64,000 nt of DNA, taken from Selenomonas sputigena. Its GTDB lineage: Bacteria > Bacillota > Negativicutes > Selenomonadales > Selenomonadaceae. The stretch spans positions 124,001 through 188,000 of the forward strand of contig NZ_CP110383.1 in assembly GCF_026015965.1 (NCBI RefSeq). The letters run 5' to 3'. The position numbers and the translations under genes are program-made. Of this stretch, positions 5,186 to 63,662 are shown in pieces. Under the pieces are notes generated by a model. The model was not told the DNA's origin. It did no database searches and saw only the letters and a program-made list of their open reading frames with translations. The first letter of the stretch is position 1. Every line of letters starts with the position of its first letter.

Positions 5186-5196
5186 GAATATTGCAA

Positions 5197-5276
5197 AAGG
5201 GGAGTCCACGAATGGGCTGAGAGGGAGCTTTTCGCTCCGACCCGAAACCTGATTTGGATCATGCCAACGTAGGGAA
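5197..5276 (+). ncRNA. TPP riboswitch (THI element)
   Basis: The conserved thi-box parts are present in order: GGGGAGTCC, then GGCTGAGAGGG, a variable P3-type hairpin (GGAGCTTTTCGCTCC), then CCCGAAACCTGATTTGG, ATCATGCCAACGTAGGGA. Thiamine pyrophosphate binding is known to switch off downstream thi genes through this RNA. Its position 60 bases before thiS and the following terminator fit transcription attenuation. Confidence 0.95.
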
Positions 5277-5291
5277 TAGAGGGCGATTTTG

Positions 5292-5330
5292 ACCGCATAC
5301 ACCACTTTGGCGTGTGCGGTTTTCTTTTTG
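5292..5330 (+). terminator. Attenuator of the TPP riboswitch
   Basis: ACCGCATACACC pairs with GGCGTGTGCGGT (with G-U pairs) and is followed by TTTCTTTTT. The U-run runs straight into the GGGAGGG ribosome site of thiS, so termination occurs just before the first gene. Confidence 0.85.
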
Positions 5331-51343: not shown

Positions 51344-51662
51344 AGCTATCTCCTCCTTAGAAGCAGGCCAGCCAACTGCGGGGAAATAGTCATTCAACGT
51401 GCAAAAGCAGGGTTGAGTGATTATTACATGTTTACAAGAAGCCTCGAGAAGTCAAGCCGAAGGCGCAGACTGATCGGTTAGACTCCTGTAAAGCGTGAGA
51501 ACATATGTACAACGTGCCTCTTTGATGATGCCATGCAGGAAACGGGAGAAAAAGCAATGCATGCCGCTTCGTGCGACGGCTGAATATATGTCCTGAAAGT
51601 TTACAACATTTACATGAAGAAACATTTTTTGACTAAAAATGTATACTTTTTCCTTTGCTTAC

Positions 51663-56163: not shown

Positions 56164-56192
56164 TTTACAGAGTAGGATGCACAGTCTATAAT
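56164..56192 (+). promoter_or_regulatory. Promoter of the permease gene
   Basis: TTTACA (56164-56169), 17 bases, TATAAT (56187-56192). Transcription would start near 56199, giving a leader of about 130 bases. Confidence 0.8.
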
Positions 56193-56211
56193 AAAAAGAG
56201 TAATTTTCTAT

Positions 56212-56316
56212 AAAAGTCCAAGAAGTCAAGCCGAAGGCGCAGACGGATTGGGTAACTTTTGTTGAGAGCGGCGCACTTTTGTCCACAAAGTGGACGTTTG
56301 TGCGTGTAATTTTTTG
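56212..56316 (+). promoter_or_regulatory. Structured leader of the permease gene (candidate attenuator or riboswitch)
   Basis: AAAAGT-CCAA (56212-56221) can pair with TTGG-GTA-ACTTTT (56248-56260), closing a stem that holds the 24-base element shared with 51447. Next comes a strong hairpin, GCGCAC tttt GTCCAC aaa GTGGAC gttt GTGCGT (56271-56305), and TAATTTTTT, a terminator form, right before the GAGGTGAT ribosome site. No known riboswitch class fits by eye. Confidence 0.5.
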
Positions 56317-56331
56317 AGGTGATATGATACC

Positions 56332-57678
56332 ATGCAGAAACAAAAAGAAATGCGGCGCGGTCTGCAGAATCGCCATTTGCAGATGATCGCGCTCGGCGGT
56401 GCCATCGGCACGGGGCTTTTCTATGGCTCGGCGTCGACCATTAAGCTCGCGGGACCTTCCGTCATGCTCGCCTATTTGACGGGCGGCGTCGTCATCTTTC
56501 TCATCATGCGCATGCTCGGCGAGATGGCGGTCGAAGAGCCGGTGTCCGGCTCCTTCAGTCACTACGCCGCGAAGTATTGGGGCGCTTTTCCGGGTTTCCT
56601 CTCGGGCTGGAACTACTGGTTCAACTACGTCATCGTCAGCATGGCGGAGCTTTCCGTCATTGGCATCTACATGAACTACTGGCTGCCCGACCTGCCGCAG
56701 TGGCTCTCGGCGCTCGTCACGCTCGTCGTCATCACGGCGCTGAACCTCGCGGCTGTCAAGGCTTACGGCGAGATGGAATTTTGGCTTGCCATCGTCAAGG
56801 TCGCCGCCATCGTCTCGATGATCGTCCTCGGGCTGTATCTCGTCTTTTCACGCCCCGAGGCGTTCCCGCTGAACTTCGCCAACCTCTGGGTGCATGACGG
56901 CTTCTTTCCGAATGGCGTTTGGGGCATGCTGCTCTCGATCACCGTCGTCATGTTTTCTTTCGGCGGCATCGAGCTGATCGGTATCACGGCGGGAGAAGCC
57001 GCCGACCCTGATCGTTCGATTCCGCGCGCCATCAATCAGGTCATCTGGCGCATCCTCATCTTTTACGTCGGCGCCATGGCGGTGCTCATGGCGCTTTGGC
57101 CGTGGGACGAGGTCGGCATGGAGGCAAGCCCCTTCGTGCAGATCTTCTCGAACGTCGGCATCCCTGCCGCCGCGCACATCCTGAACTTCGTCGTCCTGAC
57201 CGCTGCGGTATCCGTCTACAACTCGGCGATCTACAGCAACTCGCGCATGCTCTACGGACTCGCTGCAGGCGGCGATGCGCCGAAAATTCTCGCGAGTCTG
57301 TCGCGTCAGGGCGTGCCCGTCGTCGGCATCCTCATCTCCTCGGGCGTGACGCTTCTCGCCGTACTCCTCAACTACCTGTTCCCCAGACAGGTATTCATGC
57401 TCTTTCTCTCCATCGCCATGGCGTCCGTCATCATCAGCTGGGGCACGATCGTCATCACGCATTTGAAATTCCGTCGCCTCTATGAGAGAGAAGGACGCAG
57501 GGCGAAGTTCCGTGCCCCCTTCTTTCCCGTTGTCAACTACATCTGCCTAGCGTTCCTCGTCATGATGTACGCTCTCATGACGCAGATACCCGACATGCAG
57601 TTCGCCGTCCTCGTCCTGCCCGTTTGGCTCTTTGTTCTGTGGCTCGGCTATCGCAGGAAGAAGCGCGGTATTTCCTAG
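56332..57678 (+). CDS. Amino-acid permease (APC superfamily, AAT type)
   Basis: A 448-aa transporter with about twelve membrane segments. The start is typical of the AroP/CycA/ProY group: RRGLQNRHLQMIALGGAIGTGLFYGS (shown in pieces; IALGGAIGTGLF is the motif), then GEMAVEEPVSGSFSHYAAKYWG, and FGGIELIGITAGEAADPDRSIP. The family takes up amino acids with protons; the substrate cannot be fixed, though aromatic, basic or small amino acids are all known for AAT members. The leader with a terminator hairpin suggests control by transcription attenuation. GAGGTGAT before ATG. Confidence 0.88.
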   Translation: MQKQKEMRRGLQNRHLQMIALGGAIGTGLFYGSASTIKLAGPSVMLAYLTGGVVIFLIMRMLGEMAVEEPVSGSFSHYAAKYWGAFPGFLSGWNYWFNYVIVSMAELSVIGIYMNYWLPDLPQWLSALVTLVVITALNLAAVKAYGEMEFWLAIVKVAAIVSMIVLGLYLVFSRPEAFPLNFANLWVHDGFFPNGVWGMLLSITVVMFSFGGIELIGITAGEAADPDRSIPRAINQVIWRILIFYVGAMAVLMALWPWDEVGMEASPFVQIFSNVGIPAAAHILNFVVLTAAVSVYNSAIYSNSRMLYGLAAGGDAPKILASLSRQGVPVVGILISSGVTLLAVLLNYLFPRQVFMLFLSIAMASVIISWGTIVITHLKFRRLYEREGRRAKFRAPFFPVVNYICLAFLVMMYALMTQIPDMQFAVLVLPVWLFVLWLGYRRKKRGIS

Positions 57679-62450: not shown

Positions 62451-63662
62451 CTATTCTTGTTCTTTGGAAAGGCTTGCCAAATACTCATTTACGCGCCCGT
62501 AGTAGATGCGCAGGAACTTATTCGCTCCTGCCGTCATATAGACGTAGTAAGGCTTTCCCTCGGAGCGTTTCTTGTCCATGAAGTTGTAGACTGCATCATC
62601 GGGAGAACGCATCAAGAGTCCTGAAACAATCTGAAACAGTGCCTTTCGAAGATGCGGAGAACCTGCCTTGGATGTCTTGTTGCTCTTTAACTGCATTGTC
62701 CCTGACTGTTTTGCCCCGGGATCAACGCCCGCGAAAGCAGTCAACGAGCCGCGCCGAGGAAAACGGGTGATGTCGCCGATCTCTGCGATCAGCTGGCTTG
62801 CAAGTGTCGGACCGACACCGTTCATGTCAATCACAACGGGGTATTCCGGCAGCTGCTCGGCAAGAGCGACCATCTGCGTGCGCAAGGCTTCTACTGTCTT
62901 AGACAGTACATTGAGCTGGGCGATGGAGGTCTGCACCAACATCTTCGTCGTCTTGTCCATCGGGAGCATCGCAATGAGATCCTTTGCCTTTTCCATGAGC
63001 AGCCTCGGTTTGTCCGGCTGGAAGTTGTAGCCGTGGCGATGACACCATTTGCGGTAACGCTCTGTAAAGGTACTGAGGCTCATAGAGCAGACATAATCGA
63101 CGTGCCAAAACGCACGTACATAATCCACCCATTTCTGCGAGCCATCCGCTCTGGCAGGGCTTTCAAAATAGGTGTTGGCACCGGGATAGACCTGATCGAT
63201 GAGCGCGATGAGATTGTTCTTGCAGGCAGTCTTCTGCTTCATGCAGAAGGCAAACTGTCGATTCAAGGTTTTGAGTTGTGTACGTGTGGTATCCATGCCT
63301 GTATGCTGACGCAAATCGCACCAATTGTCAAGGGCATACCGCGCAATCTTCTTGGCATCGGCTTTATCCGTCTTGACCTTGCGCAGCGTGTTATTCCCAA
63401 AGTCCTTGATGAGCTTAGGATTGACGGCGGTGACGAAAAGATCGGAGGCGGCAAGCCGTTGGAGCAGCGGCTCGTAGTAACGTCCTGTGTGCTCCATGAC
63501 GATGCGCGTATCTCCACCAAGAGTGTGGGCAAAGGAGATGAGTTCCTTAATGCCGCTCTTGGTGTGGAGCACCTCGAAGGGGCGAGCAAGGAGCTTTCCA
63601 CCGGGCTGGAGTGCAGCGACCATGCTTTTGCCCTTGGAGACATCAATACCGACAGCGTTCAT
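62451..63662 (-). CDS. IS110-family transposase
   Basis: A 403-aa DEDD transposase. N-terminal RuvC-like domain: GIDVSKGKSMVAAL (Asp 7), RIVMEHTGRYYEPLLQ (Glu, about 56), VNPKLIKDFGNNTLRKVKTDKADAKKIARYA (parts; D-x2-D near 101). C-terminal Tnp20-type domain: MNGVGPTLASQLIAEIGDITRF and FAGVDPGAKQSGT, where the Ser is the candidate nucleophile. The start is the ATG at 63662 on the minus strand, after TTGGAGGGA. The protein looks complete, with no stop or frameshift. Confidence 0.93.
   Translation of the reverse strand: MNAVGIDVSKGKSMVAALQPGGKLLARPFEVLHTKSGIKELISFAHTLGGDTRIVMEHTGRYYEPLLQRLAASDLFVTAVNPKLIKDFGNNTLRKVKTDKADAKKIARYALDNWCDLRQHTGMDTTRTQLKTLNRQFAFCMKQKTACKNNLIALIDQVYPGANTYFESPARADGSQKWVDYVRAFWHVDYVCSMSLSTFTERYRKWCHRHGYNFQPDKPRLLMEKAKDLIAMLPMDKTTKMLVQTSIAQLNVLSKTVEALRTQMVALAEQLPEYPVVIDMNGVGPTLASQLIAEIGDITRFPRRGSLTAFAGVDPGAKQSGTMQLKSNKTSKAGSPHLRKALFQIVSGLLMRSPDDAVYNFMDKKRSEGKPYYVYMTAGANKFLRIYYGRVNEYLASLSKEQE

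What the first reader, a model, noticed from the sequence alone, without database searches (positions are those of the whole stretch)
56199..56323. Permease leader with the features of an unnamed riboswitch or attenuator
From a strong promoter the leader forms a possible closing stem (AAAAGT-CCAA with TTGG-GTA-ACTTTT) around a conserved 24-base element, followed by a strong terminator hairpin with a U-run just before the ribosome site. ACTTTTGT occurs twice (56255 and 56275), so the first copy can compete for the terminator arm. No known class is recognised by eye.
Basis: partly seen in the sequence, partly recalled or inferred. Interest (0 to 1): 0.6.

Follow-up and report, generated by a model that had tools for sequence, protein, structure and literature searches.

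The report
Mobile structured repeat in permease leader
The supposed new riboswitch in front of an amino acid permease is one copy of a small, folded, apparently mobile DNA repeat scattered about a hundred times through this bacterium's genome, which here happens to sit where it can act as a transcription terminator.

Summary
The sequence features are real and at the stated coordinates, but the leader is not a permease riboswitch. Window 56201-56313 is one copy of a ~105-110 bp dispersed structured repeat: 118 covariance-model matches in this genome, 49 of them at 95 bits or more. Model matches occur in 69 of 151 genomes sampled from the family. Copies are mostly intergenic, in both orientations, next to unrelated genes, often in head-to-tail tandems, and present/absent or different in copy number between two congeners. 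Three filled/empty comparisons show insertion at a T-rich 5-base core with hybrid junctions. No Rfam family matches; 2 of 30 permease orthologue loci (the two congeners) carry it. At this site the copy fills nearly the whole 5' UTR and adjoins a T6 run; 82 other inspected copies have at most T4. So it plausibly works as a constitutive, partial terminator. Between congeners the focal copy stays paired in 5 of 6 changed pairs, against 12 of 33 elsewhere: weak evidence for local domestication. The mobilising enzyme is unknown.

The parts
56164..56192 (+). sigma-70-like promoter of the permease (TTTACA, 17 bp, TATAAT)
   Evidence: same sequence in the congener G001
56201..56313 (+). the dispersed structured repeat (focal copy), nearly the whole 5' UTR
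   Evidence: nhmmer model 4-117; CM R1 match 56196-56318, 120.6 bits
56210..56262 (+). module A: P1 (56210-56221 with 56248-56251 and 56255-56262), tandem G.A (56222-56223 / 56246-56247), P2 GTC/GAC (56225-56227 / 56242-56244), AA/GCA internal loop, P3 GCC-GAA-GGC (56230-56238)
   Evidence: fold; compensatory changes; the G.A pairs are inferred by eye
   Evidence: fold; pairing kept in the congener by G.U pairs; different sequence but still a hairpin in some other genera
56310..56315 (+). T6 run after module B, present in both congeners; longest run 4 in the 82 other copies inspected
56316..56321 (+). ribosome-binding site GAGGTG
   Evidence: by eye
56332..57678 (+). AAT-family amino acid permease (PF00324; best NCBIfam scores PheP and AroP, below their equivalog cut-offs, so substrate unknown)
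51422..51535 (+). second, diverged copy in the window (module A recognisable, module B not), about 390 bp upstream of an ORF that looks like metG (by eye)

Best explanation
The leader is a copy of a small non-coding, mobile, structured repeat of this bacterial family (tentatively Selenomonadaceae, recalled). It already lay between this permease's promoter and its ribosome-binding site in the common ancestor of the two congeners. It was not built as a sensor. Shown: high copy number, tandem arrays, mixed orientation, presence/absence between congeners, empty sites, conserved fold. Inferred: because module B here adjoins a T6 run, RNA polymerase starting at the permease promoter is partly terminated before the gene, so the insertion works as a fixed attenuator or insulator of permease expression, with no ligand. 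Also inferred: the repeat moves by insertion at T-rich sites, by an enzyme not identified here.
For: Copies: 53 by BLAST with 40 of 89 candidates scored, 118 by covariance model with 150 of 1083 candidates scored; 51 BLAST matches in the congener. Filled/empty sites: L078 vs L033 and L023 vs L104, and L038 inserted in a host repeat with 9 empty G001 paralogues aligned, 8 of which have TTTGT at the site. Tandem number differs at L013/L084, L020/L079 and L044/L088. Hybrid junction cores and target logo. Orientation to neighbours mixed: 18 / 17 / 7 / 6 of 48 clusters. The 10 sense-side downstream genes examined (of 24) are functionally unrelated. Permease orthologues: 2 of the 30 loci given have it. 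Rfam: nothing on the focal copy and nothing covering the other-genus copies scanned. Fold kept by compensation: 0 of 500 shuffles reach the covariation score. T6 run not seen in 82 other copies.
Against: No transcription or termination data exist here. The focal copy stays paired better than other copies between congeners (5 of 6 changed pairs versus 12 of 33; one-sided Fisher p = 0.046, two-sided 0.068; one-sided p = 0.09 without two doubtful pairs), which could hint at a regulated role. No mobilising gene was found, so 'mobile' rests on comparison of two congeners. The consensus terminator scan did not list the hairpin.
Confidence: 0.82

Rival explanations
1. Domesticated conditional attenuator: the inserted repeat was recruited at this site, and an RNA-binding protein or trans factor that recognises the conserved module A core modulates termination at module B in response to amino acid supply.
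For: Between congeners the focal copy stays paired in 5 of 6 changed pairs, and keeps the T6 run and RBS spacing. The core's unpaired bases (tandem G.A, AA/GCA, mostly GNA-type loop) recur in other genera. An excess of G.U over A.C (43 vs 29 cells in module A) suggests that the + strand RNA is what is selected.
Against: The statistics are weak. No antiterminator fold that excludes the terminator is predicted (both hairpins coexist). The duplicated ACTTTTGT is not conserved. I know of no such protein (not searched).
Confidence: 0.12
2. A new riboswitch class whose many copies regulate many genes.
For: Covariation across genera, compact conserved core, some copies 19-61 nt upstream of called gene starts in sense orientation.
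Against: Half the clusters have the downstream gene on the opposite strand (24 of 48), and in co-directional gaps antisense outnumbers sense 18 to 7. The 10 neighbouring genes examined share no pathway. Copies appear and disappear between congeners. Head-to-tail tandem arrays. Not found at 28 of 30 permease orthologue loci.
Confidence: 0.03
3. The repeat is a non-autonomous single-strand (HUH, IS200/IS605- or REP-type) element: on the minus strand it lies 3' of an RYAA tetramer, has a hairpin near each end, no inverted termini, and ends in GTAA.
For: Two subterminal hairpins, no terminal inverted repeats seen, junctions consistent with insertion beside a short fixed target and with tandem insertion at its own end (geometry read by eye).
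Against: No Y1 transposase match in G000, one contig rated 100% complete. No association in the family: 8 of 19 genomes with at least 10 model matches have Y1, against 59 of 132 others (counted). No GTAG at the 5' foot of either hairpin; GTAG occurs only on the 3' side of module B.
Confidence: 0.3
4. The repeat is moved by an IS110-type (bridge RNA) or serine recombinase through a circle whose junction resembles the target (shared TT dinucleotide core, hybrid flanks).
For: Hybrid cores at three filled/empty comparisons (cores read by eye); target logo resembles the element's own junction; tandem arrays.
Against: No IS110 match in some high-copy genomes (for example G020 and G027); no serine recombinase domain match in G020 and G060 of 10 genomes searched. 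In G049 the IS110 looks like a parasite guided into the repeat rather than its mover.
Confidence: 0.2

Closest known systems
BOX / RUP / SPRITE small interspersed repeats of Streptococcus pneumoniae (PMC3049150, abstract and outline read)
   Same: Small interspersed repeats with extensive secondary structure; per the abstract they are judged parasitic, insert slowly, and are likely to affect co-transcribed genes (one BOX forms a composite RNA with two T box riboswitches).
   Different: Not compared by sequence here. Per the abstract BOX, RUP and SPRITE are almost confined to S. pneumoniae and S. mitis; this model has matches in 16 of 30 genera sampled.
REP/BIME and RAYT (TnpA-REP) systems (PMC8266576 and PMC3733652, passages read)
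   Same: High-copy hairpin repeats; E. coli REP stems carry a conserved AA-GC mismatch (PMC8266576 passage), reminiscent of the AA/GCA internal loop here.
   Different: About 105 bp with two dissimilar hairpins, direct-orientation tandems, GTAG only on the 3' side of module B, no Y1 transposase match in G000.
bcr1-type repeats of Bacillus cereus (features recalled; only search listing seen)
   Same: Recalled: ~150 bp, ~80-90 copies, structured, mobile-element features.
   Different: Different host; sequences not compared.
Leader riboswitches and attenuators (Rfam 15)
   Same: Position between promoter and RBS, aptamer-like module followed by terminator-like hairpin.
   Different: No Rfam match; dispersed and apparently mobile; no shared gene function among the 10 neighbours examined.

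Membership tests
Riboswitch / cis-regulatory leader RNA class | matches a known class | tested here: not met
   no Rfam hit on the leader at gathering or at E up to 5
Riboswitch / cis-regulatory leader RNA class | sits in the 5' leader, same strand, of functionally related genes | tested here: not met
   24 of 48 clusters have the downstream gene on the same strand; unrelated functions in the 10 of 24 sense-side genes examined
Riboswitch / cis-regulatory leader RNA class | conserved upstream of orthologous permeases | tested here: not met
   2 of 30 orthologue loci, the two congeners only, at E up to 1 with default filters
Riboswitch / cis-regulatory leader RNA class | ligand binding and ligand-dependent termination | not testable with these tools
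   needs in-line probing and transcription assays
Intrinsic terminator / attenuator (function at this site) | stable hairpin directly followed by a U-run in the transcript | tested here: met
   hairpin 56268-56307, T6 at 56310-56315; T6 kept in G001; not listed by the simple scan
Small interspersed mobile repeat (BOX/REP-like, MITE-like) | many dispersed, mostly intergenic copies | tested here: met
   118 CM matches; by my simple gene of 48 clusters lie inside a called gene (one a weak hit, one probably a mis-called start) and 8 more overlap a neighbour by 2-92 bp
Small interspersed mobile repeat (BOX/REP-like, MITE-like) | presence/absence at orthologous sites | tested here: met
   empty/filled sites
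Small interspersed mobile repeat (BOX/REP-like, MITE-like) | identified mobilising transposase with matching ends | tested here: not met
   Y1, IS110 and serine recombinase searches gave no consistent partner; other transposase families not tested
REP/RAYT | GTAG tetranucleotide at the 5' foot of a single 20-40 bp palindrome; RAYT/Y1 gene in the genome | tested here: not met
   two hairpins in ~105 bp; GTAG is found only 3' of module B (alignment); no PF01797 match in G000
IS200/IS605-derived palindrome-associated element | subterminal hairpins, no terminal inverted repeats, insertion 3' of a short target without duplication | tested here: inconclusive
   geometry fits on the minus strand by eye, but junction cores are hybrid and no Y1 in G000
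SRP RNA-derived element | match to the bacterial SRP RNA model | tested here: not met
   RF00169 gives one match in G000 even at E up to 10, at 2276019-2276118, not a repeat copy; 150 of 163 candidates scored

The most novel reading that the evidence does not exclude
A family-wide class of mobile elements whose transposition substrate is a conserved folded nucleic acid core, and which integrates through a circular junction at junction-like sites by an enzyme unlike those tested. Its core (tandem G.A, AA/GCA loop, GNA-type loop) is reused in several repeat architectures. In this permease leader one copy has been domesticated into a protein- or structure-controlled terminator.
Probability: 0.12. 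Interest if true: 0.7.

Novelty: new member of a known kind. Interest (0 to 1): 0.4.

Why it matters
It removes a false riboswitch candidate and explains it: dispersed structured repeats can pass every by-eye criterion for a riboswitch. It describes what appears to be an unnamed, family-wide repeat (no Rfam 15 match; the rows listed by my paper searches, showed nothing on it) with clear covariation and readable empty sites, so its mobility can be studied directly. It also gives a concrete case of a repeat insertion that probably installs a terminator in front of a transporter gene.

Tried and rejected
Riboswitch class: rejected by copy number, orientation, gene context and orthologues.

Competing ACTTTTGT pairing: rejected because the orthologous leader does not keep it.

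Simple target-site duplication: not favoured, because empty sites show hybrid cores. Against this, left and right 5-mers of a copy match more often than shuffled (190 against 178.2 expected over 52 copies, 1 of 2000 shuffles as high), though the copies include orthologues and so are not independent.

Y1/RAYT, IS110 and serine recombinases as the obligatory mover: not supported. Reverse transcriptases, tyrosine recombinases and DDE transposases were not tested.

SRP-RNA origin (core resembles SRP helix 8 by eye, recalled): not supported.

Replication-strand orientation bias: counted by eye only from the positions, looked inconsistent between the two genomes, dropped.

Comparisons that failed and were not used: the L018/L135 and L015/L153 alignments were in the wrong orientation and are uninformative. 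L011/L139 lacks the element but with a different left breakpoint, so it is not counted as a clean empty site. Several other joined flanks were found in G001 as two pieces 63-129 bp apart (filled or partly filled) or as one piece only; they were not tabulated. In one search only 83 of the 127 hits passed my filters; the focal G000 copy is among those missed, and its T6 run is read. In one search only 14 of 50 G000 copies could be paired with a G001 copy. In one search one of the 22 joined flanks (L024) used the wrong right end.

Paper searches listed nothing on these repeats; PMC8632094 (passages) mentions two other Selenomonadales/Negativicutes motifs (gltD, ldh2), not this one.

Full report
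What was claimed and what is there. The window carries, upstream of an AAT-family amino acid permease (56332-57678; PF00324), a sigma-70-like promoter (56164-56192, 11 of 12 bases) and a 5' UTR that folds into two hairpins.

It is a genomic repeat. Searching the window's own genome (G000, 2,613,980 bp, one contig) with the leader gave 53 matches (40 of 89 candidates scored). Aligning 42 copies (46) gave a consensus close to TTTAC-YATGAAAGTCCAAGAAGTCAAGCCCGAAGGGCGCAGACTGATTGGGTAACTTTCATTAAGGGCGGCGCACAATGTCCACAAAGTGGACGTTTGTGCGTGTAG-TTTAC. A covariance model (R1) finds 118 matches in G000 at E <= 0.001 (150 of 1083 candidates scored); 49 of the 118 score 95 bits or more, and the focal copy is 37th. 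The weaker matches include partial copies of module A alone. Head-to-tail tandems share the TTTAC. The focal copy occupies 56201-56313, so from the expected transcription start (about 56199, inferred) it makes up nearly the whole leader. A second, diverged copy lies at 51422-51535.

The fold is real. On the 42-copy alignment 97.0% of cells pair, 10 pairs change on both sides in 71 cells, and no shuffle of 500 reaches the covariation score; sliding partners drops pairing to 24-43%. Nearly all of these two-sided changes are in module A; module B hardly varies within the genome. P1 alternates between AAAGT/ACTTT, AAGCC/GGCTT and AAACC/GGTTT. On 30 distinct rows (loci of other genomes of the family, plus two rows from a G000 locus; an alignment fitted to the model, which favours it) 94.5% pair and 27 of 31 pairs change on both sides, module B included. 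Module A keeps its unpaired bases (tandem G.A, AA/GCA, mostly GNA loop), while module B has a different sequence in some genera but stays a hairpin. At module A pairs G.U outnumbers A.C 43 to 29 (42 to 20 without one poorly conserved pair), a mild sign that the + strand RNA is what is selected. Within the genome, module-A-like hairpins are also the units of other arrays, for example 4.6 copies of a 118-bp unit with two such hairpins each.

It moves, or has moved. The congener G001 (contig 2,568,361 bp; I recall this as the size of Selenomonas sputigena ATCC 35185, not checked by a call) has 51 BLAST matches. Of the regions compared, G000 lacks the copy present at G001 L078, G001 lacks the pair present at G000 L023, and G000 L038 sits inside a different dispersed repeat, of which nine empty G001 paralogues were aligned. 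Tandem number differs at three further sites. Many other sites are filled in both genomes. In each of the three filled/empty comparisons the empty 5-mer (TTCAT, TCTAT, and TTTGT in 8 of the 9 paralogues) reads as a hybrid after insertion: the left copy ends in the element's AC and the right copy keeps the target's last bases (for example TTTGT becomes TTTAC...CTTGT). These cores were read by eye from the alignments, and later point changes cannot be excluded. Over unique free ends (57 left, 52 right) the target looks like ATTTT-R-Y and resembles the element's own junction. This is the pattern expected if a circle joins a target at a shared TT core; other routes that use short homology are not excluded.

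It is not a leader class. Among 48 clusters in fetched stretches (62 hits of at least 20 bits, my own simple gene calls), the flanking genes point <E< 18, <E> 17, >E> 7, >E< 6: the downstream gene is on the element's strand in 24 of 48. Ten of those 24 genes were scanned; they encode MATE proteins (2), a fumarase-type lyase, a lipase, a SIS protein, an L,D-transpeptidase, UvrC, an FtsA/PilM-like protein, a phosphoglycerate dehydrogenase and a PLP-dependent decarboxylase. Of the 30 loci given for the closest permease orthologues, only those of G000 and G001 hold the element. No Rfam family matches the leader, and none at E <= 1 covers the copies in 15 scanned loci.

Distribution. R1 matches occur in 69 of 151 genomes sampled from the family and in 16 of 30 genera. 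Of the 189 genomes held for the order, 60 match at E <= 1e-5 and all 60 belong to the family; the tally again names 30 genera, so the listing does not show whether other families were among the 189. In these large scans only 18-23 candidates per genome were scored, so copy numbers are floors, and some low-scoring genomes may hold only partial relatives.

What it does here. In the focal copy, module B is followed by TTTTTT and then the RBS; G001 keeps the T6 run. In the 82 other copies inspected the longest T run there is 4 (its 83 rows, of 127 hits, include G001's orthologue with T6 and miss the focal G000 copy for a pattern reason). The most likely consequence is a constitutive intrinsic terminator between promoter and gene. 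Between the congeners 5 of 6 changed pairs in the focal copy are paired in both (the sixth is paired only in G001), against 12 of 33 in 13 other orthologous copies (Fisher one-sided 0.046, two-sided 0.068; 5 of 13 and one-sided p = 0.09 without two doubtful pairs). This is suggestive of local constraint, not proof.

What moves it. Y1 transposase: no match in G000; among 19 genomes with at least 10 matches 8 have Y1, against 59 of the other 132. IS110: one match in G000 but none in several high-copy genomes. Serine recombinase domain: no match in G020 and G060, matches in the other 8 of 10 searched, G000 included. So none of the three is an obligatory present-day partner; mobilisation in trans by a lost enzyme is possible. 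In G049 an IS110 element abuts a repeat copy at CATAGTAAACT, and its own upstream non-coding region carries the same 11-mer. By analogy with IS621, which is guided into REP elements (PMC11208160, passages), that IS110 appears to be aimed at the repeat.

Place among known things. Functionally it is closest to pneumococcal BOX elements, which the authors judge parasitic, slow to move, and likely to affect co-transcribed genes (PMC3049150, abstract). It does not meet the REP definition: GTAG is only 3' of module B, and no Y1 gene was found in this genome. I file it as a new member of a known kind (small interspersed structured repeats).

Noticed in passing
window 51422-51535 (+): Second, diverged copy of the repeat upstream of an ORF that looks like metG (by eye); module A recognisable, module B not.
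   Followed up: partly
window 5188-5292 (+): TPP riboswitch, 59.6 bits.
   Followed up: no
window 62451-63662 (-): IS110-family recombinase ORF, the only PF01548 match in this genome.
   Followed up: no
L204:1704-3343 (G049): An IS110 element begins at a repeat junction (judged from where its homology to L205 starts), and its upstream non-coding region carries the same CATAGTAAACT 11-mer; two other IS110s (L205, L206) show similar flank/internal matches by eye, as expected for bridge-RNA target guides.
   Followed up: partly
L213:2862-3405 (G000): Tandem array of 4.6 copies of a 118-bp unit, each with two module-A-like hairpins; similar hairpins seen by eye in L214, L215 and L221.
   Followed up: partly
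L038 flanks; G001 L136-L152 (except L139): A second dispersed repeat family (~140 bp) with many copies in G001, into one G000 copy of which the focal repeat inserted.
   Followed up: no
L011 vs L139; L047 vs L157: Element-associated deletions or fusions between the congeners, suggesting recombination between neighbouring repeats.
   Followed up: no
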